64,000 nucleotides of DNA from Nonomuraea rhodomycinica (GTDB taxonomy: Bacteria > Actinomycetota > Actinomycetes > Streptosporangiales > Streptosporangiaceae): the NCBI RefSeq assembly GCF_013363995.1, contig NZ_JABWGO010000001.1:868001-932000 (forward strand), read 5' to 3'. The notes under the pieces are model-generated. The model was not told the DNA's origin and did not search any database. It worked only from the letters and a program-made list of their open reading frames with translations. This document shows positions 58,034 to 64,000 of the stretch, one piece after another. The number at the start of each line of letters is the position of its first letter. Position 1 is the first letter of the stretch. The position numbers and the translations under genes are program-made.

Positions 58034-60157
58034 CTAGAAGACCATTCTCACCCCGGCCCGCCGGATGGCGACCCACCGCGCCAGCGGGTCCACGCTCCCG
58101 CCGGCGTGATGCCCGGCCGCCCGGGCGGCGGGCGGCGCCTCGGCGAGCGACAGGGCGCCGTCCGCCCGAACCGCCGGCGGCGCCTCCGCGAGCGACAGGG
58201 CGCCGTCCGTCAGGGCGGGCGGCCGTACGGGTGCCTCCGGCGCGATGCCCGCGACGACGGTGAGCCGGCCGTCGCCGGCGCGGGGCGCGGGCGGCTCCTC
58301 GCCGAGCAGGGCGTGCAGGGCCGCCAGGGCGTGGTCCCGGGCGACGGGGCTGTCCTCGGCGAAGGCCCGTTCGCGCGCGTACTCCCTGATCAGGTCGTGG
58401 AAGGTGTAGCGGCCGGGCCCGCACTCCTCGATCAGGTGGGCGGCGGCGAGCCGGCCCAGCAGCCGGTCGGCCGCCTCGGCGCCGGCGCCGATCAGCGCGG
58501 CGGCCTCCTCGCGGGTGAAGGCCGGCCAGGGCAGCAGGCCCAGCAGCCGGAACAGCCGCCGGGACGGCGGGTCGAGGCGGCGGTAGGACAGGGCGAACGC
58601 GCCGCGGACCGCTGCCTGGGGGTCGTCGTGGAGGTCGAGGATGGACAGCCGGGCCCGGGTGAGCCGGCGCGCCTGTCCGGCGATGTCCCTGCCCGGCGCG
58701 GCGACGATGGCGGCGGCGGCGATCCGCAGCGCCAGGGGCAGGTACCCGCAGAGCCTGGCGAGCTCCAGCGCGGCGGCGGGTTCGGCCGCTAATCGGCGGC
58801 TGCCGAGGATCGCGTCGAAGAGCGAGACCGCCTCGTCGGGCATGAGCATCCCGAGCGGCACCGGGATCGCGCCGTCGCGGGCGACCAGGCCGGTCAGCCG
58901 GTCGCGGCTGGTGACGACGGTGACGCAGCGCCGGCCGCCGGGCAGGAGCGGGCGGACCTGGTCGACGCCGCCGGCGTTGTCCAGCACCACCAGCACGCGC
59001 CGGTCGGCCAGCAGGCTGCGGTAGGCGGCGCTCGCCTCCTCCACGGTGTCCGGCACCCGTTCCGGCGGCACGCCGAGCGCGCGCAGCAGCCGCCCCAGCG
59101 CCTCGATGGGCGGCAGAGGGCGCTCCGGCGAGCAGCCGTGCAGGTTGACGTAGAGCTGGCCGTCGGGGAACAGCGAGCGGACCCGGTGGCCCCAGTGCAC
59201 GGCCAGGGCGGTCTTGCCGACGCCGCCCGCGCCGGTGACCATGGCGACGGCGGCCGTCTCGCCGCGGACCGCGATCTCGTCGAGCACGCTCAGCTCCTGG
59301 TGGCGGCCGGTGAACGGGCCCGCCTCGGGCGGGAGCTGGGCGGGCACGGCCGCGTGCGCCGCGGCCGCCGGGCGCGGGACGCGGGCCATGCGCACGTCAC
59401 CGCGCAGGATGCGCTGGCGGAGCTGGCGCAACTCGGGCCCCGGGTCCAGGCCCAGCTCCTCGCTGAGGTGCCGCCGGGTGCTTTCGTAACGCTCCAACGC
59501 GTCGGCGCGGCGTCCGACCCGGCACAGCGCCACCATGAGCAGGCCCACCAGCCCCTCGCGCAGGGGGTGCGTCGCCACCAGGGCGATCAGCTCGGGGATG
59601 AGCACCGCGTCACGTCCGGCGCGGGTCTCGGCGTTGAGGCACTCCTCGGTGACGGCCAGCCGTTCCTCGCTCAGCGTGTCGCGCAGCCGGTCCAGCAGCT
59701 CCCCGCCGGTGATGCCGGTCAGCGGCTCACCGCGCCACAGCGCCAGCGCGCTGCGCATCCCGGCCGCCTGGGCCTCGTCCGTCTCCATGGTGCGCGCCCG
59801 CGCCACCAGCAGCCGGAACTCGTGCAGATCGACCTGCTCGGCCGCGAGGCCCAGCAGGTAGCCCTGCGGGCCGTGGACGATCGTGACGCCCGCCCGGGCC
59901 AGGACCTGCCGGAGCCGCGACACGTAGCCCTGCACCAGGCCCCGCGCGCCGGCCGGCGGCCGTTCCCCCCACAACGCCGCTATCAGCCGCTCCATCGACA
60001 CCGTGCGTCCGGCGTCGAGGGCGAGCAGCGCCAGCACGGCGCGCTGGCGTGGCGTGCCGAGCGGGATCTCGTGGCGTCCCCGCGACGCCCGGACCGTTCC
60101 CAGGAGTCCGATTCTCACGGCCTGCTCCAGACCTGCCAGGTCTGTTTCAGCTGACAT
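58034..60157 (-). CDS. SARP-type pathway regulator with BTAD and NB-ARC domains
   Basis: ATG 60157 with GGAG 7 nt upstream gives a 707-aa AfsR-like protein. It has an N-terminal OmpR-type HTH (IGLLGTVRASRGRHEIPLGTPRQRAVLALLALDAGRTVSMERLIAALWG; about 15-100) and a BTAD helical domain (LVARARTMETDEAQAAGMRSALALWRGEPLTGITG). The NB-ARC ATPase has GAGGVGKTALAVHWGH, and GxP (GYLPLALRIAA) and RYTFHDLIREYARE are also seen. The TPR region normal in AfsR is missing; a Pro/Ala tail with a duplicated 12-aa unit (DGALSLAEAPPA) takes its place. Divergence from the A-domain operon makes it the likely cluster activator. Confidence 0.93.
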   Translation of the reverse strand: MSAETDLAGLEQAVRIGLLGTVRASRGRHEIPLGTPRQRAVLALLALDAGRTVSMERLIAALWGERPPAGARGLVQGYVSRLRQVLARAGVTIVHGPQGYLLGLAAEQVDLHEFRLLVARARTMETDEAQAAGMRSALALWRGEPLTGITGGELLDRLRDTLSEERLAVTEECLNAETRAGRDAVLIPELIALVATHPLREGLVGLLMVALCRVGRRADALERYESTRRHLSEELGLDPGPELRQLRQRILRGDVRMARVPRPAAAAHAAVPAQLPPEAGPFTGRHQELSVLDEIAVRGETAAVAMVTGAGGVGKTALAVHWGHRVRSLFPDGQLYVNLHGCSPERPLPPIEALGRLLRALGVPPERVPDTVEEASAAYRSLLADRRVLVVLDNAGGVDQVRPLLPGGRRCVTVVTSRDRLTGLVARDGAIPVPLGMLMPDEAVSLFDAILGSRRLAAEPAAALELARLCGYLPLALRIAAAAIVAAPGRDIAGQARRLTRARLSILDLHDDPQAAVRGAFALSYRRLDPPSRRLFRLLGLLPWPAFTREEAAALIGAGAEAADRLLGRLAAAHLIEECGPGRYTFHDLIREYARERAFAEDSPVARDHALAALHALLGEEPPAPRAGDGRLTVVAGIAPEAPVRPPALTDGALSLAEAPPAVRADGALSLAEAPPAARAAGHHAGGSVDPLARWVAIRRAGVRMVF

Positions 60158-60224
60158 ATCGCTCTCCGTCTGAAACATCGTTGTAACAGCGCGTGATGCG
60201 GGAGATACCGGACGAAGTCCAGCG

Positions 60225-60253
60225 CGCATCCTGTCCAAAACAAGCTCGCATCC
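60225..60253. promoter_or_regulatory. Candidate SARP site: CGCATCC direct repeats, 22 bp apart
   Basis: CGCATCC occurs at 60225-60231 and again at 60247-60253, an offset of exactly two helical turns. It lies in the 199-bp divergent region between the SARP and adenylation genes. SARPs bind direct heptamer repeats spaced 11 or 22 bp, so this is a plausible target. Confidence 0.45.
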
Positions 60254-60356
60254 AGTGCTCTCCAACACCATGAACACGATTTCCCCGCATTCGTACCGCA
60301 ACAGCCTTCGGATTGCGTATCGCGCCGTATGCGGCCATCTCTGGAAAGGGGTAAGC

Positions 60357-61919
60357 GTGTCCTATCCATTTCGTGACGTGATGGAAGCGTTTTCCGAAAC
60401 AGCCCGCCTTCATCCGGACCGCCCGGCCGTGACGCGGCATGACCGGACGGTCACGTACGCGGAGCTGGACGCCTGGGTCCGGGCGACGGCGCGCCGGCTG
60501 GGCCCGGACCCCGGGGTGGTCGGGGTGCTGACGTCGCGTTCGGCGGGCACCGTCGCCGCGCTGCTCGGCACGCTGGCGGCCGGCGGGGTCTACTGCCCGA
60601 TCGACCCGGCGTACCCGTGGCCGCGGCGGGAGGCGCTGATGGCGGCGAGCGGCTGCCGCGTGGTGATCGGCGAGCCGGGCTCCGCCGTGCCGCCCGGGGT
60701 CGGCCTGACGCCGCTCCCCGGCCCGGCAGGCCTGCTCGACGCGGATGGGCGCGGCGAGGAGCCGGGCGGCAGCGCCGTCGCCGGCCGCGTGGCGGTCTCG
60801 CCGGACGACCCCGCGTACATCCTGTTCACCTCCGGCTCCACCGGCGAGCCCCGGCCGGTGGTGACGCCACGGGGCGCGATCTCGGTCGTGACGGCCGGGC
60901 TGCGCGAGCTGTTCGGGATCACCCCGGAGGACAGGGTGCTCCAGTTCGCCTCCCTGAACTGGGACACCTGCCTGGAGGAGATCCTGCCCGCGCTGACCTC
61001 GGGCGCGACGCTGGTCTTCCACGACCACGCGTACGCGGGGTCGCTCCACCGGATGCTGCGGATGATCGACGCCGAGCGCGTCACGGTCCTGGACCTGCCC
61101 ACCGCGTTCTGGCACGAGCTGGTCCATCACCTGACGGCCGAGCGCGCCGCCCTGCCGCCGTCGGTGCGGCTGGTCGTCGTCGGCGGGGAGGCGGTCAGTC
61201 CGGTACGGCTGGCCGACTGGCGCGCCCTCGGCCTGGACGGCGTCCGCCTGCTCAACACGTACGGGTGCACCGAGACCACGCTCATCACGCACGCCGTCGA
61301 CCTGCACGGCCCGCACGCCGCGGCCGGCGCGCCGGACGACCGGGTGCCGATCGGCCGGCCCCTCCCCCACGTCGTCGAGCGGATCAGCGAGGAGGGCGAG
61401 CTGCTGGTCGGCGGCCCCGCGCTGGCCCTGGGGTACCGGGACCGGCCGGAGGCCACCGCCGAGCGGTTCGTCGAGTTGGACGACCTCACCCCAGGCGGCG
61501 ACGGGCCGCGCCGGTACTTCCGCACCGGCGACCGGGTCAGCCGGCGCCCGGACGGCGCGCTCGTCCACGAGGGGCGGCTGGACCACCAGCTCAAGGTCCG
61601 CGGCGTCCGGGTGGACCCGGGCGAGGTGGAGGCCCAGATCGCCAGCCATCCGCGGGTCGGGGCGGTGGCCGTGGTGGGCGTCCCGGTCGCCGGCCACACG
61701 ACGCTCGCCGCCTACGTGGTGCCCCGCTCCCCCGCCGGGCCGGCGTCCCCCGCCATGACCGGGTCCCTGGCCAGGGAGGTCCTGGACTACCTGCGCGAGC
61801 ACGTCCCGGCTCATCTCGTTCCGCACCGGATCACCGTCGTACCCGAGCTCGTCCACACGGCGAGCGGGAAAGTCGACCGCGCCGGATCGCACCGGCGATA
61901 CCGGTCGGCCGCCGTTTAA
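60357..61919 (+). CDS. Stand-alone NRPS-type adenylation domain protein
   Basis: GTG 60357 follows AAAGGGG and gives a 520-aa protein with A-domain core motifs in order: A2 (YCPIDPAYPW), A3 (YILFTSGSTGEPRPVV), A4 (LNWDTCLEE), A5 (LNTYGCTETT), A7 (YFRTGDRVSRRPDG), A8 (GRLDHQLKVRGVRVDPGEVEAQIA) and A10 (ASGKVDRAG). It has no fused carrier or condensation domain. It activates an amino acid and loads it on the PCP encoded 13 bp downstream. The specificity pocket cannot be assigned reliably by eye. Confidence 0.93.
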   Translation: MSYPFRDVMEAFSETARLHPDRPAVTRHDRTVTYAELDAWVRATARRLGPDPGVVGVLTSRSAGTVAALLGTLAAGGVYCPIDPAYPWPRREALMAASGCRVVIGEPGSAVPPGVGLTPLPGPAGLLDADGRGEEPGGSAVAGRVAVSPDDPAYILFTSGSTGEPRPVVTPRGAISVVTAGLRELFGITPEDRVLQFASLNWDTCLEEILPALTSGATLVFHDHAYAGSLHRMLRMIDAERVTVLDLPTAFWHELVHHLTAERAALPPSVRLVVVGGEAVSPVRLADWRALGLDGVRLLNTYGCTETTLITHAVDLHGPHAAAGAPDDRVPIGRPLPHVVERISEEGELLVGGPALALGYRDRPEATAERFVELDDLTPGGDGPRRYFRTGDRVSRRPDGALVHEGRLDHQLKVRGVRVDPGEVEAQIASHPRVGAVAVVGVPVAGHTTLAAYVVPRSPAGPASPAMTGSLAREVLDYLREHVPAHLVPHRITVVPELVHTASGKVDRAGSHRRYRSAAV

Positions 61920-61932
61920 GGAGACCCCTTCC

Positions 61933-62151
61933 ATGAATGTCGACGCCGTATCCGCGGTATTCCGCGAAGTTCTGGAAATTTCCGAGATCAACGCTGATTC
62001 TGACTTTTTCGTTATGGGCGGGGATTCGCTGCTCGCCACCCGCGTGCTGAGCGCCGTCGCGCGAGCGAGCGGCGTGGAGCTGGAATTCGACGACCTCCTC
62101 GACGCGCCCACTCCCGGCGCCCTTTCCAAGAAGATCGCGGGGGCGGCGTGA
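61933..62151 (+). CDS. Stand-alone peptidyl/acyl carrier protein
   Basis: ATG 61933 with AAGGAGA gives a 72-aa carrier. The phosphopantetheine Ser is in VMGGDSLLATRVL (Ser about residue 32), the NRPS-type consensus GGDSL. It is flanked by helices I and II-III. The GTG of the oxidase overlaps its stop, so the three genes are translated together. It would carry the amino acid activated by the A domain. Confidence 0.92.
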   Translation: MNVDAVSAVFREVLEISEINADSDFFVMGGDSLLATRVLSAVARASGVELEFDDLLDAPTPGALSKKIAGAA

Positions 62152-63473
62152 ACGTCGTCGTCGTGGGAGCCGGTCTGGCCGGCCTGACCGCGGCGGCCGA
62201 GCTGGTCGCGCGCGGCGCCGAGGTCACCGTGCTGGAGGCGCGGGAACGGGTGGGCGGCCGGACGCGCGGCCTGGAGGTCGAGCCGGGCGGCTGGGTGGAC
62301 GCGGGCGCCGCGTACCTGGGCGAGCGGCACACCGCGCTCACCGCCCTGCTCGCCGAGCTGGACCTGAAGACGACGCCGGCCACCGTGGCGGGAGCCAGCC
62401 GGTTCGCCCTCCGCGACGCCGGCCGCACCCGGCCCGGCCGGTTCCCGCCGCTGTCCGCGGTGGCGCTGGGCGAGATGTTCGACGCGCTGGAGGAGGTCAC
62501 CCGGCTCGTCCGGCCGGACGCCCCCTGGCTGACGGAGGACGCCGCCCGGCTCGACGGCGTGACCGTGGAGCGGTGGGCGGCCGAGCGCCTGCGCCACCCG
62601 GACGCGCGGCTGTTCCTCCCGCTGTTCCTCGGCGAGATGATGGCCGCCGACCCGGCCCGCGTGTCGGTCCTGCACATGGCCTTCTACCTGCGCTCGGGCG
62701 GCGGGATCCGCTACCTCAACGCGTTCGAGGGAGGCGCGCAGGAGTGGCGGATCGCCGGCGGCGCGCATCAGCTCTGCGAACGGCTGGCCGCCGGGCTGGG
62801 CGAGCGGGTGCGCCTGGGAGAGCCGGTCCTGGCGCTCCACCAGGACGCCGGCGGCGTCACCGCCGTCACCCCGCGCGGCCGGGTGCGGGGCGCCCACGCC
62901 GTGGTGGCGGTCCCCCCGGTGCTCGCCGACGCGATCGACCACCGGCCCGGGCCGCCCGCGCCCCGCTCCACCCCGGTGACCGGCCCGGGCTGCGCGGTGA
63001 AGGTGCACCTGGTCTACCCGTCGCCGCTCTGGCGGGGGCTGGGCCTGTCCGGCTGGTCGGTCAGCGCCGAGGGTCCCCTGCTGTCCACCGTGGACGACTC
63101 GCCCGCCGGCGGGCGGGCGGGCGTGCTCACCGGCTTCGTCACCGGCGCCGAGGCCGTCCGTTACGCCGCGCTGCCCGCCTCCGGGCAGCGCGAACTGGCG
63201 GTGGCGCAGGCCGCGCGGCTGTTCCCCGAACTGCCGCCGCCGACCGCGTTCCACCTCACCGACTGGGTCCACGAGCCGTACAGCCGGGGCTGCTACGCGG
63301 CCCTGTTCGGCCCGGGCGACTGGCTGCGCCTCGGCCCCGGGCTGACCGCGCCGCACGGGCGCGTGCACTGGGCCGGCACCGAGACCAGCACCGAGTTCTT
63401 CGGCCTCATGGAAGGCGCCATCCGGTCAGGTCACCGCGTGGCCGCAGAGATCACCTGGAGGGAAACACCATGA
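62148..63473 (+). CDS. FAD-dependent amine oxidase (monoamine oxidase fold)
   Basis: The GTGA overlap with the carrier gives a 441-aa protein. It has the dinucleotide motif VVVGAGLAGLTAAAELVARGAEVTVLEARERVGGRTRG and the rest of the MAO core (GGWVDAGAAYLGERH; IAGGAHQLCERLAAGLGERVRLGEPVLALHQDAGGV). It ends with WAGTETSTEFFGLMEGAIRSGHRVAAEI, the C-terminal FAD-binding stretch. It likely oxidises an amino or aminoacyl group, perhaps while bound to the PCP, giving an imine or keto product. Confidence 0.92.
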   Translation: MNVVVVGAGLAGLTAAAELVARGAEVTVLEARERVGGRTRGLEVEPGGWVDAGAAYLGERHTALTALLAELDLKTTPATVAGASRFALRDAGRTRPGRFPPLSAVALGEMFDALEEVTRLVRPDAPWLTEDAARLDGVTVERWAAERLRHPDARLFLPLFLGEMMAADPARVSVLHMAFYLRSGGGIRYLNAFEGGAQEWRIAGGAHQLCERLAAGLGERVRLGEPVLALHQDAGGVTAVTPRGRVRGAHAVVAVPPVLADAIDHRPGPPAPRSTPVTGPGCAVKVHLVYPSPLWRGLGLSGWSVSAEGPLLSTVDDSPAGGRAGVLTGFVTGAEAVRYAALPASGQRELAVAQAARLFPELPPPTAFHLTDWVHEPYSRGCYAALFGPGDWLRLGPGLTAPHGRVHWAGTETSTEFFGLMEGAIRSGHRVAAEITWRETP

Positions 63474-64000
63474 CCTCGATCGCCCCCCTGCCCGTCCGCC
63501 GGCGGTTCATGACCGAGCCCGGCCTGGGCGCGGGCAACTTCCTCGATCACGCTCTGGAGGGCAACCCCCACCGGGACGTGCCCTTCGTCCACACCCACCG
63601 CACCGACCACCGCGGCCGGGTCGTGCTGCGCGGCCACAGCCTGCTGGACCTGGCCCGGATGCGCGACGGCTACGCCCGCTGGTACCACGCCAACGGCGTG
63701 CGGCCGGGCGACCCGGTCGGGATCGTCGTGGCCGAGGGCCTGGAGCCGCTGATCCACTTCCTGGCGCTCACCGCGCTCGGCGCCGTGCCCGCGATGGTCA
63801 ACGACGCGATGCGGCCGGACGTCATGGTCCGCTACCTCAACCACGTGGGCGTGGTGGGCGTCGTCGCCGACGACACCACCCGGCTCCAGCTCGCCTACCG
63901 CGACGACCCCCAGAACCGGCCGCGGTTCGTCGCGCTCGCCTCCGAGGTCCGCGCCTTCGACGCCGCCTCGGGCACGCTGCCGGATTCCTATCCCCACCGG
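63470..64000 (+). CDS. AMP-dependent acyl-CoA synthetase/ligase, 3'-truncated by the window
   Basis: ATG 63470 overlaps the oxidase stop (ATGA) with GGAGGGAA 5 nt upstream. The frame stays open to the last base (177 codons). The visible part has FVHTHRTDHRGRVVLRGHSLLDLARMRDGYARWYHANGVRPGDPVGIVVAEGLEPLIHFLALTALGAVPAMVNDAM, the N-terminal pattern of adenylate-forming ligases (VRPGDPV, G.VPA..N). The P-loop and A8 motifs lie beyond the window. As the fourth gene of the operon it may activate a carboxylic acid partner. Confidence 0.88.
   Translation, partial: MTSIAPLPVRRRFMTEPGLGAGNFLDHALEGNPHRDVPFVHTHRTDHRGRVVLRGHSLLDLARMRDGYARWYHANGVRPGDPVGIVVAEGLEPLIHFLALTALGAVPAMVNDAMRPDVMVRYLNHVGVVGVVADDTTRLQLAYRDDPQNRPRFVALASEVRAFDAASGTLPDSYPHR

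What the first reader, a model, noticed from the sequence alone, without database searches (positions are those of the whole stretch)
58034..64000. Left edge of an unidentified biosynthetic cluster: SARP, stand-alone A domain, PCP, amine oxidase, acyl ligase
Four plus-strand genes are tightly packed: a 13-bp gap between A domain and PCP, then GTGA and ATGA overlaps. They encode a free adenylation protein, a GGDSL carrier, a MAO-fold flavoprotein and an adenylate-forming ligase. They are divergent from a SARP. Known carrier-bound amino-acid oxidation, such as prolyl-PCP to pyrrolyl-PCP, uses acyl-CoA-dehydrogenase-like flavoproteins. A MAO-fold oxidase in that position is less common and suggests a different chemistry on a PCP-bound amino acid, such as imine or alpha-keto formation. 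The pairing with a ligase suggests the acyl product is then joined to another acid or released. Product and substrate are unknown.
Basis: partly seen in the sequence, partly recalled or inferred. Interest (0 to 1): 0.75.

Follow-up and report, generated by a model that had tools for sequence, protein, structure and literature searches.

The report
Nitrite-using beta-lysine biosynthesis gene cluster
A Nonomuraea actinomycete carries the front end of a widespread, apparently undescribed gene cluster that is predicted to make beta-lysine, hold it on a carrier protein, oxidise it and then likely bond a nitrogen from nitrite to it, which would give a rare nitrogen-nitrogen bond.

Summary
In detail: a divergent SARP and four tightly coupled genes (A domain, PCP, MAO-fold oxidase, adenylate-forming ligase) lie at 58034-64000. 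Past the window edge they continue into an 11-gene operon with a lysine-2,3-aminomutase-like radical SAM enzyme, ATP-grasp and PaaK-like ligases, MFS, SDR and thioesterase. The host is a Nonomuraea. The fourth gene is not read as an ordinary acyl ligase: its closest solved relatives include the diazotase CmaA6 and the N-nitrosylase Tri17, which use ATP and nitrite. The A-PCP-MAO-ligase order holds in 42 of 43 related loci (the other is cut) from many actinomycete genera. In 12 of 43 loci nitrate or nitrite genes sit in or beside the operon (nitrate reductase and/or NarK in 10, aspartate-nitrosuccinate genes in 2), against 0 of 43 control loci. The A pocket (DTEDVGTLIK) fits a diamino acid; the oxidase is nearest to an MAO solved with putrescine. 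Best reading: beta-lysine is loaded on the PCP, oxidised to a pyrroline and N-nitrosated. Nitrite use is well supported by gene linkage; reactions, order and product are inferred, and this window's own operon has no nitrite gene.

The parts
58034..60178 (-). AfsR/SARP-type regulator (winged helix, BTAD, NB-ARC), divergent from the operon; start ATG 60178 is my choice, the ORF list gives TTG 60301
   Evidence: Pfam BTAD 133.1 bits, NB-ARC 31 bits; start read by eye
60357..61919 (+). Stand-alone adenylation domain, pocket code DTEDVGTLIK, predicted substrate a basic diamino acid (beta-lysine favoured)
   Evidence: Pfam AMP-binding 207.7 bits; code (positions by recalled GrsA numbering); start by eye
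61933..62151 (+). Peptidyl carrier protein with GGDSL serine
   Evidence: Pfam PP-binding 56 bits; GGDSL in 42 of 42 homologues
62148..63473 (+). MAO-fold flavin amine oxidase, predicted to oxidise the carrier-bound 1,4-diamine
   Evidence: Pfam Amino_oxidase 215.1 bits; nearest solved protein 8p84/9h5p, 9h5p being its complex with putrescine; MAO lysine and Cys-Tyr motif in 42 of 42
63470..64000 (+). Start of the CmaA6/Tri17-type adenylate-forming ligase, predicted nitrite-activating N-N ligase (continues to 65164 in window numbering; L009 7470-9164)

Best explanation
This is the first part of a conserved 11-gene operon that is predicted to turn lysine into beta-lysine, load it on a carrier protein, likely oxidise it to a five-membered pyrroline and then likely bond a nitrite-derived nitrogen to it. 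Steps: (1) the radical SAM enzyme makes beta-lysine from lysine (inferred from residues and relatives); (2) the A domain loads it on the PCP (inferred from the pocket code); (3) beta-lysine is a 3,6-diamine, that is a substituted putrescine, and the MAO oxidises the terminal amine so that the chain closes to a 1-pyrroline on the carrier (inferred); (4) the CmaA6/Tri17-type ligase adenylates nitrite and nitrosates the ring nitrogen, making the N-N bond (nitrite use well supported by linked genes, the attacked atom inferred); (5) the thioesterase, ATP-grasp and PaaK-like ligases finish and join the unit, and the MFS protein exports the product (inferred). The nitrite comes from a nitrate importer and reductase or the aspartate-nitrosuccinate pathway in some relatives; in this strain, whose operon has neither, it probably comes from its ordinary nitrate-assimilation operon.
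For: Ligase clade: CmaA6 294 bits, 9xb8 288, Tri17 264, next at most 74; best NCBIfam model is the AvaA6 diazotase, 353 bits. Nitrite supply: nitrate reductase (NF047855, 745 bits) and/or NarK in 10 of 43 loci, CreE-CreD (nitrosuccinate lyase, 557 bits) in 2 of 43, 0 of 43 control loci; in S. saharense the run thioesterase, nitrate reductase, NirB N-half, NarK, PaaK2 holds no siroheme nitrite-reductase half. In S. gelaticus creE and creD sit between ligase and radical SAM gene. Code DTE[D/N][V/I]GT in 41 of 41 A domains read, the 42nd being cut; Asp at position 1 and Glu at 3 bind the two amines in PosA (PMC10522769, passages). Radical SAM residues C125/C129/C132/R134/D293/D330/K337 of lysine 2,3-aminomutase kept in 34 of 34; relatives at about 70% sit beside L-erythro-3,5-diaminohexanoate dehydrogenase in 2 of 5 loci viewed. 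The radical SAM gene stays with the core in four of the six loci that lack the ATP-grasp gene. MAO: nearest solved protein was solved with putrescine.
Against: 31 of 43 loci, and this window's own operon, have no nitrite gene in the stretch seen; the own genome has no CreE match. One of the three closest solved ligases, 9xb8, is deposited as Fatty-acid-CoA ligase FadD. The ligase (353 bits) is far below the AvaA6 cut-off (975) and the radical SAM enzyme below those of lysine 2,3-aminomutase (161 of 525) and the KamA family (153 of 199). The code cannot tell beta-lysine from lysine. Nine loci lack the radical SAM gene; all nine genomes have one elsewhere, but so do 147 of 150 of one such family, so that carries no weight. 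In the MAO the second aromatic-cage tyrosine is Leu in 42 of 42, so its substrate may differ from ordinary amines. Two loci (L164, L165, one genus) have A-PCP-MAO without the ligase in the stretch seen.
Confidence: 0.5

Rival explanations
1. The A domain loads ordinary L-lysine, the MAO oxidises its epsilon-amine and a six-membered piperideine forms on the carrier; beta-lysine from the radical SAM enzyme is a separate partner joined by the ATP-grasp ligase. The nitrite step then acts on the six-membered ring or on the partner.
For: The code cannot separate lysine from beta-lysine (PMC10522769 passages); nine of 43 loci lack the radical SAM gene.
Against: The radical SAM gene stays with the core, apart from the ATP-grasp module, in L077, L084 and L093, and in L101, whose genome gave no ATP-grasp match; the nearest MAO was solved with a 1,4-diamine.
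Confidence: 0.2
2. The ligase diazotises a primary amine with nitrite only to remove it, as AvaA6 and AvaA7 do, and the final product has no N-N bond.
For: Best curated model is the AvaA6 diazotase; diazotisation-dependent deamination is described in PMC10777205 (passages).
Against: The cases in the passages read are aryl amines; an alkyl diazonium would be very unstable (general chemistry). Whether any gene here plays the AvaA7 part was not tested.
Confidence: 0.15
3. The ligase is an ordinary acyl-CoA or acyl-carrier ligase and the nitrate and nitrosuccinate genes are neighbours by chance or serve another need.
For: 31 of 43 loci show no such gene; the ligase misses the AvaA6 cut-off; 9xb8, 288 bits, is deposited as Fatty-acid-CoA ligase FadD.
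Against: Two unrelated nitrite routes stand in or beside the operon in different genera, with stop/start overlaps in L072 (if the listed GTG start is used) and L101; 12 of 43 against 0 of 43.
Confidence: 0.1
4. One reading: the MAO makes an alpha-imine or alpha-keto acid on the carrier and the ligase joins or releases it.
For: MAO-fold oxidase next to A and PCP.
Against: Ligase clade and nitrite genes; diamine pocket and nearest MAO.
Confidence: 0.05

Closest known systems
Cma and Ava clusters (p-coumaric and avenalumic acid; diazotases CmaA6, AvaA6)
   Same: Adenylate-forming enzyme of the same clade that uses ATP and nitrite; 72 of 134 ava-like clusters lack the nitrosuccinate genes, as this one does (PMC10777205, passages)
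   Different: Those act on aryl amines carried through a type II PKS; here there is an A domain, PCP, MAO and aminomutase for an amino acid, and in some relatives a nitrate reductase instead of the nitrosuccinate pathway
Triacsin cluster (Tri17)
   Same: Tri17-type ligase, proposed to adenylate nitrite; Tri17 is also reported to act on pyrrolidines and piperidines (PMC11705231, passages)
   Different: Triacsin starts from a hydrazone built through N6-hydroxylysine and glycine; I did not see such genes among the operon genes, but did not search the genome for them
Negamycin cluster
   Same: Beta-lysine formation, ATP-grasp gene and N-N bond (PMC12154649, passages)
   Different: There a heme enzyme (NegJ) makes hydrazinoacetic acid from glycine; here the N-N enzyme would be an adenylate-forming ligase acting on the beta-lysine unit
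Prolyl-PCP to pyrrolyl-PCP pathways (recalled)
   Same: Carrier-bound amino acid oxidised by a flavoenzyme after loading by a free A domain
   Different: Those use acyl-CoA-dehydrogenase-type flavoproteins (recalled; also in the finding); here a MAO-fold amine oxidase and a nitrite step would follow

Membership tests
Nitrite-activating adenylate-forming ligases (CmaA6/AvaA6/CreM/Tri17 clade) | Sequence closer to the clade than to acyl ligases | tested here: met
   294 (CmaA6) and 264 (Tri17) bits against at most 74 for the rest, except 9xb8 at 288, named Fatty-acid-CoA ligase FadD by its depositors and not resolved here; no tree was built
Nitrite-activating adenylate-forming ligases (CmaA6/AvaA6/CreM/Tri17 clade) | Glutamate that holds Mg-ATP (CreM E352) | tested here: met
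   E353 of GSSEMG invariant in 24 of 24 aligned; that it equals CreM E352 is inferred; E352 from PMC11705231 passages. The residue is shared by the wider superfamily
Nitrite-activating adenylate-forming ligases (CmaA6/AvaA6/CreM/Tri17 clade) | Nitrite source linked to the gene | tested here: inconclusive
   Met in 12 of 43 related loci, not in the window's own operon
Nitrite-activating adenylate-forming ligases (CmaA6/AvaA6/CreM/Tri17 clade) | ATP- and nitrite-dependent N-N bond formation | not testable with these tools
   Needs protein
AvaA6 equivalog (NF058622) | Score over curated cut-off 975 | tested here: not met
   353.2 bits
Lysine 2,3-aminomutase | Radical SAM cysteines, Arg134, Asp293, Asp330, PLP lysine | tested here: met
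   Aligned with 2a5h (the lysine placed by eye beyond the alignment end); all seven in 34 of 34; residue roles recalled
Lysine 2,3-aminomutase | Score over TIGR03820 (525.4) or TIGR00238 (199.2) cut-off | tested here: not met
   161.1 and 152.7 bits; the two relatives beside the lysine-degradation dehydrogenase also miss them
MAO-type flavin amine oxidases | Fold, active-site lysine and Cys-Tyr of the FAD site | tested here: met
   Pfam 215.1 bits, Foldseek E 9.4e-45 to 8p84, 42 of 42 for each motif; motif roles recalled
MAO-type flavin amine oxidases | Second aromatic-cage residue (Tyr435 of MAO B) | tested here: not met
   Leu in 42 of 42; position by eye
Beta-lysine-activating A domains | Pocket code of a known beta-lysine A domain | tested here: inconclusive
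   DTEDVGTLIK fits diamino acids; a near-identical beta-lysine code is recalled only, and no paper listed holds it; the one beta-lysine code in a paper seen (DGESISVVNK) differs
Aspartate-nitrosuccinate (ANS) clusters | CreE and CreD homologues | tested here: not met
   Own genome 0 of 1 for CreE (no positive control in that call); five Lyase_1 stretches exist and none was tested as a CreD; both genes present in L100 and L101
Negamycin-type clusters | KinJ/NegJ heme enzyme | not tested
   No NegJ sequence was searched

The most novel reading that the evidence does not exclude
A new class of N-N natural products: beta-lysine is closed to a pyrroline on a carrier protein by a MAO and the ring nitrogen is nitrosated by an adenylate-forming ligase fed by a dedicated nitrate reductase, giving a bicyclic hydrazine-type or N-nitroso unit (for example a pyrrolo-pyrazolidinone) that actinomycetes from Nonomuraea to Kitasatospora finish with a second, sometimes unlinked, ATP-grasp/PaaK operon.
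Probability: 0.3. Interest if true: 0.87.

Novelty: new variant of a known kind. Interest (0 to 1): 0.7.

Why it matters
In the passages read, the natural substrates of nitrite-using ligases are aryl amines or a hydrazone; an aliphatic, carrier-bound amine made from lysine would extend that chemistry. The locus family gives a ready test set: one conserved core in at least 42 genomes besides this one and two independent nitrite sources that predict 15N labelling. A nitrate reductase built into a biosynthetic operon without a nitrite reductase would also tie specialised metabolism directly to nitrate, and it gives a mining handle for unseen N-N compounds.

Tried and rejected
Negamycin-like pathway: considered because of beta-lysine and an N-N bond; set aside because its N-N step uses a heme enzyme.

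Radical SAM co-occurrence: 9 of 9 genomes whose locus lacks the gene have one elsewhere, but the control gave 147 of 150 in one such family, so I dropped it as evidence.

NRPS link in L077: the NRPS after the core looked like a user of the unit, but the ATP-grasp module is present elsewhere in that genome, so I do not claim it. Of the five genomes searched only that of L101 (S. gelaticus) gave no ATP-grasp match; there an ACP and a PKS (by eye) stand beside the core.

Ligase model: pLDDT 65.6, used only to learn the titles of the nearest solved entries. SARP-type repeat pattern of my own making: 6 matches, 7.9 expected. Recalled beta-lysine code DTEDVGTMVK: no paper listed holds it. Literature: in an open-licence library; I saw listings, starts of abstracts and passages of six papers, and none described this operon. 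Two listed mining papers (PMC11177257, PMC11429834) were not opened, not all matching papers were listed, and subscription journals are mostly missing. antiSMASH and MIBiG were not available.

Control caveats: the nitrite-gene queries come from the test loci themselves, the test loci are related to each other, and the 43 controls (36 distant-ligase loci, many from other phyla, and 7 radical SAM loci without this ligase) are not matched by taxon; the Fisher value of 1.0e-4 is only a guide.
Full report
What was checked. The window is G000:C11:868001-932000. The four genes and the divergent SARP are where the finding puts them, with the stated 13-bp gap and the GTGA and ATGA overlaps.

The operon beyond the edge. 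Window position w equals L009 position w minus 56000. After the ligase (63470-65164) follow, in window numbering, a KamA-like radical SAM enzyme 65161-66591, an ATP-grasp ligase 66588-67562, a PaaK-like ligase 67559-68776, an MFS protein 68773-70035 (named by eye), an SDR 70032-70883, a PaaI-type hotdog thioesterase 70880-71263 and a second PaaK-like ligase 71323-72579. From the ligase on, each gene overlaps the one before by 4 bases except the last, which follows after 59 bases.

The ligase. phmmer against the PDB gives 8ztz/9ijf 294 bits, 9xb8/9xbs 288, 9bq0 and 8tf7 264, then at most 74 bits. One search names 8ztz/9ijf as the ATP-dependent diazotase CmaA6 and 8tf7/9bq0 as Tri17. 9xb8 is deposited as Fatty-acid-CoA ligase FadD; it is not in the structure listing and I did not learn its activity. 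The best NCBIfam model is the AvaA6 diazotase, 353 bits, under its cut-off of 975; the next is a fatty-acid-CoA ligase subfamily at 156. In the papers seen, CmaA6 makes diazo compounds from aryl amines with ATP and nitrite (PMC10777205, passages), and Tri17 is proposed to adenylate nitrite and is reported to act also on pyrrolidines and piperidines (PMC11705231, passages).

Distribution. A scan of one genome for each of 84,980 species with the ligase kept 79 loci: 43 at 69-96% identity (L065-L107, from 42 genomes), then a gap to 34% and less. 860 proteins pass E 1e-60 among the candidates scored, and the 120 listed are all at least 77% identical. A, PCP, MAO and ligase stand in that order in 42 of 43 loci, the other being cut at a contig end; the radical SAM gene comes next of the operon genes in 34 of 43 (with creE-creD between in L101); ATP-grasp is in 37, SDR 38, MFS 38, PaaK1 36, thioesterase 34, PaaK2 22 of 43, some absences being due to contig ends. 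Six loci lack the ATP-grasp gene; four of them keep the radical SAM gene, and the other two (L081, L088, both cut at a contig end) lack both. I gave five of these six genomes to a search (not L088): four have the ATP-grasp gene elsewhere, that of L101 gave no match. In three (L077, L084, L093) the genes ATP-grasp, PaaK1, MFS, SDR and PaaK2 form a second, unlinked operon. In the window's family the ATP-grasp gene at 59% or more occurs in 11 of 297 genomes, and in two more at 46-50%; the 11 are those that hold the operon. So the core and the second half work together (inference). The MAO at 65% or more is in 13 of 297, and three more reach 43-44%; the two genomes beyond the 11, one genus, have A-PCP-MAO without a ligase in the stretch seen.

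Nitrite supply. An assimilatory-type nitrate reductase (NF047855, 745 bits, cut-off 1100) is in L067, L072, L078, L105 and L106; NarK is in L065-L069, L073, L078, L105 and L106, and in L055, a longer stretch of the L072 genome. In Streptosporangium saharense (L055 with L162) the order is thioesterase, nitrate reductase, a 482-aa protein matching only the first half of NirB, NarK, PaaK2, and the siroheme half of NirB is not found in the stretch. In Streptomyces gelaticus (L101) and Nocardioides speluncae (L100) the genes after the ligase are homologues of CreE and CreD; the L101 CreD homologue scores 557 bits to nitrosuccinate lyase, cut-off 650. The CreE call rests on its place, PF13454 and recalled annotation; no NCBIfam model hit it. 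In all 12 of 43 loci have such genes; 0 of 43 control loci do (caveats under tried and rejected). The window's operon has only 59 bp between thioesterase and PaaK2, where its nearest relatives L065 and L066 carry NarK, so it seems to have lost it (inference). Its genome has a NarK-nitrate reductase operon on C88 followed by what looks by eye like a full NirB, and no CreE match. 72 of 134 ava-like clusters also lack the nitrosuccinate genes (PMC10777205, passages).

Substrate. The A-domain code, placed by recalled GrsA numbering, is DTEDVGTLIK, and all 41 homologues read have DTE[D/N][V/I]GT; the 42nd (L075) is cut. In PosA the Asp and Glu at positions 1 and 3 hold the two amines of a diamino acid, and DLEDIGTV[T/V/I]K is listed for related synthetases of unknown product (PMC10522769, passages). 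A beta-lysine synthetase code given there, DGESISVVNK, is different, so the code does not prove beta-lysine. The radical SAM enzyme aligns with lysine 2,3-aminomutase 2a5h and keeps the cysteines, Arg134, Asp293, Asp330 and PLP lysine in 34 of 34, though it misses the curated cut-offs. Relatives at about 70% identity are common: 95 of 297 genomes of the window's family match, operon copies included, and 147 of 150 of the family of G302. I viewed the neighbours of five such genes by eye; two (L062, L064) looked like, and by model are, beside L-erythro-3,5-diaminohexanoate dehydrogenase (255 and 256 bits, cut-off 200), which fits lysine catabolism through beta-lysine. In the other three I did not see it.

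The oxidase. The model (pLDDT 80.9) is closest to a Thermoanaerobacterales MAO, 41% identity, one entry of which is its complex with putrescine; human MAO and putrescine oxidase follow. The active-site lysine and the Cys-Tyr of the FAD site are in 42 of 42; the second cage tyrosine is Leu in 42 of 42. Beta-lysine has its amines on C3 and C6, a 1,4-diamine like putrescine, so oxidation at C6 would close a five-membered 1-pyrroline (chemistry; inference).

How it most likely works. Lysine to beta-lysine; loading on the PCP; oxidation to a carrier-bound pyrroline; nitrosation of nitrogen by the ligase with nitrite; release and joining by thioesterase, ATP-grasp and PaaK-like ligases; export. Shown: gene content, order, conservation, nearest relatives of the ligase, linked nitrite genes. 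Inferred: every reaction, their order, the atom attacked and the product. My odds: ligase uses nitrite 0.85, beta-lysine on the PCP 0.7, MAO before ligase with ring closure 0.6.

Novelty. Ten paper searches in an open-licence library (calls listed under tried and rejected) showed no paper on this operon in what I saw of them. I rate it a new variant of a known kind: the N-N ligase clade is known, its use on a carrier-bound lysine-derived amine is not in what I read.

Noticed in passing
L083 13018-13797, L086 11733-12509, L088 11720-12502, L097 11731-12522: A DUF3050 protein (326 bits for the L088 copy; weak haem-oxygenase-like hit), a possible diiron oxidase, follows the ligase, or the radical SAM gene in L083. 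Function unknown.
   Followed up: partly
L070 and L083 (Nonomuraea aurantiaca): One genome carries two copies of the operon of different subtypes, 85% and 77% identical in the ligase to the window.
   Followed up: no
L070 17367-18596: An ORF that looks by eye like a TnpB-type transposon protein sits inside the operon between SDR and thioesterase genes.
   Followed up: no
L164, L165: A-PCP-MAO without the ligase in one genus; either a shorter pathway to the oxidised unit or a decayed operon.
   Followed up: partly
L078, L089, L090, L102, L106: A second, different ATP-grasp gene divergent from the ATP-grasp module in five loci.
   Followed up: no
L062, L064: KamA-like genes that miss the curated cut-offs sit beside 3,5-diaminohexanoate dehydrogenase, suggesting lysine catabolism through beta-lysine; such KamA-like genes are in 147 of 150 genomes of one family.
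   Followed up: partly
L101 17737-21695: In Streptomyces gelaticus the core with creE-creD stands next to an ACP and a PKS (by eye), and this genome gave no match to the ATP-grasp gene.
   Followed up: partly
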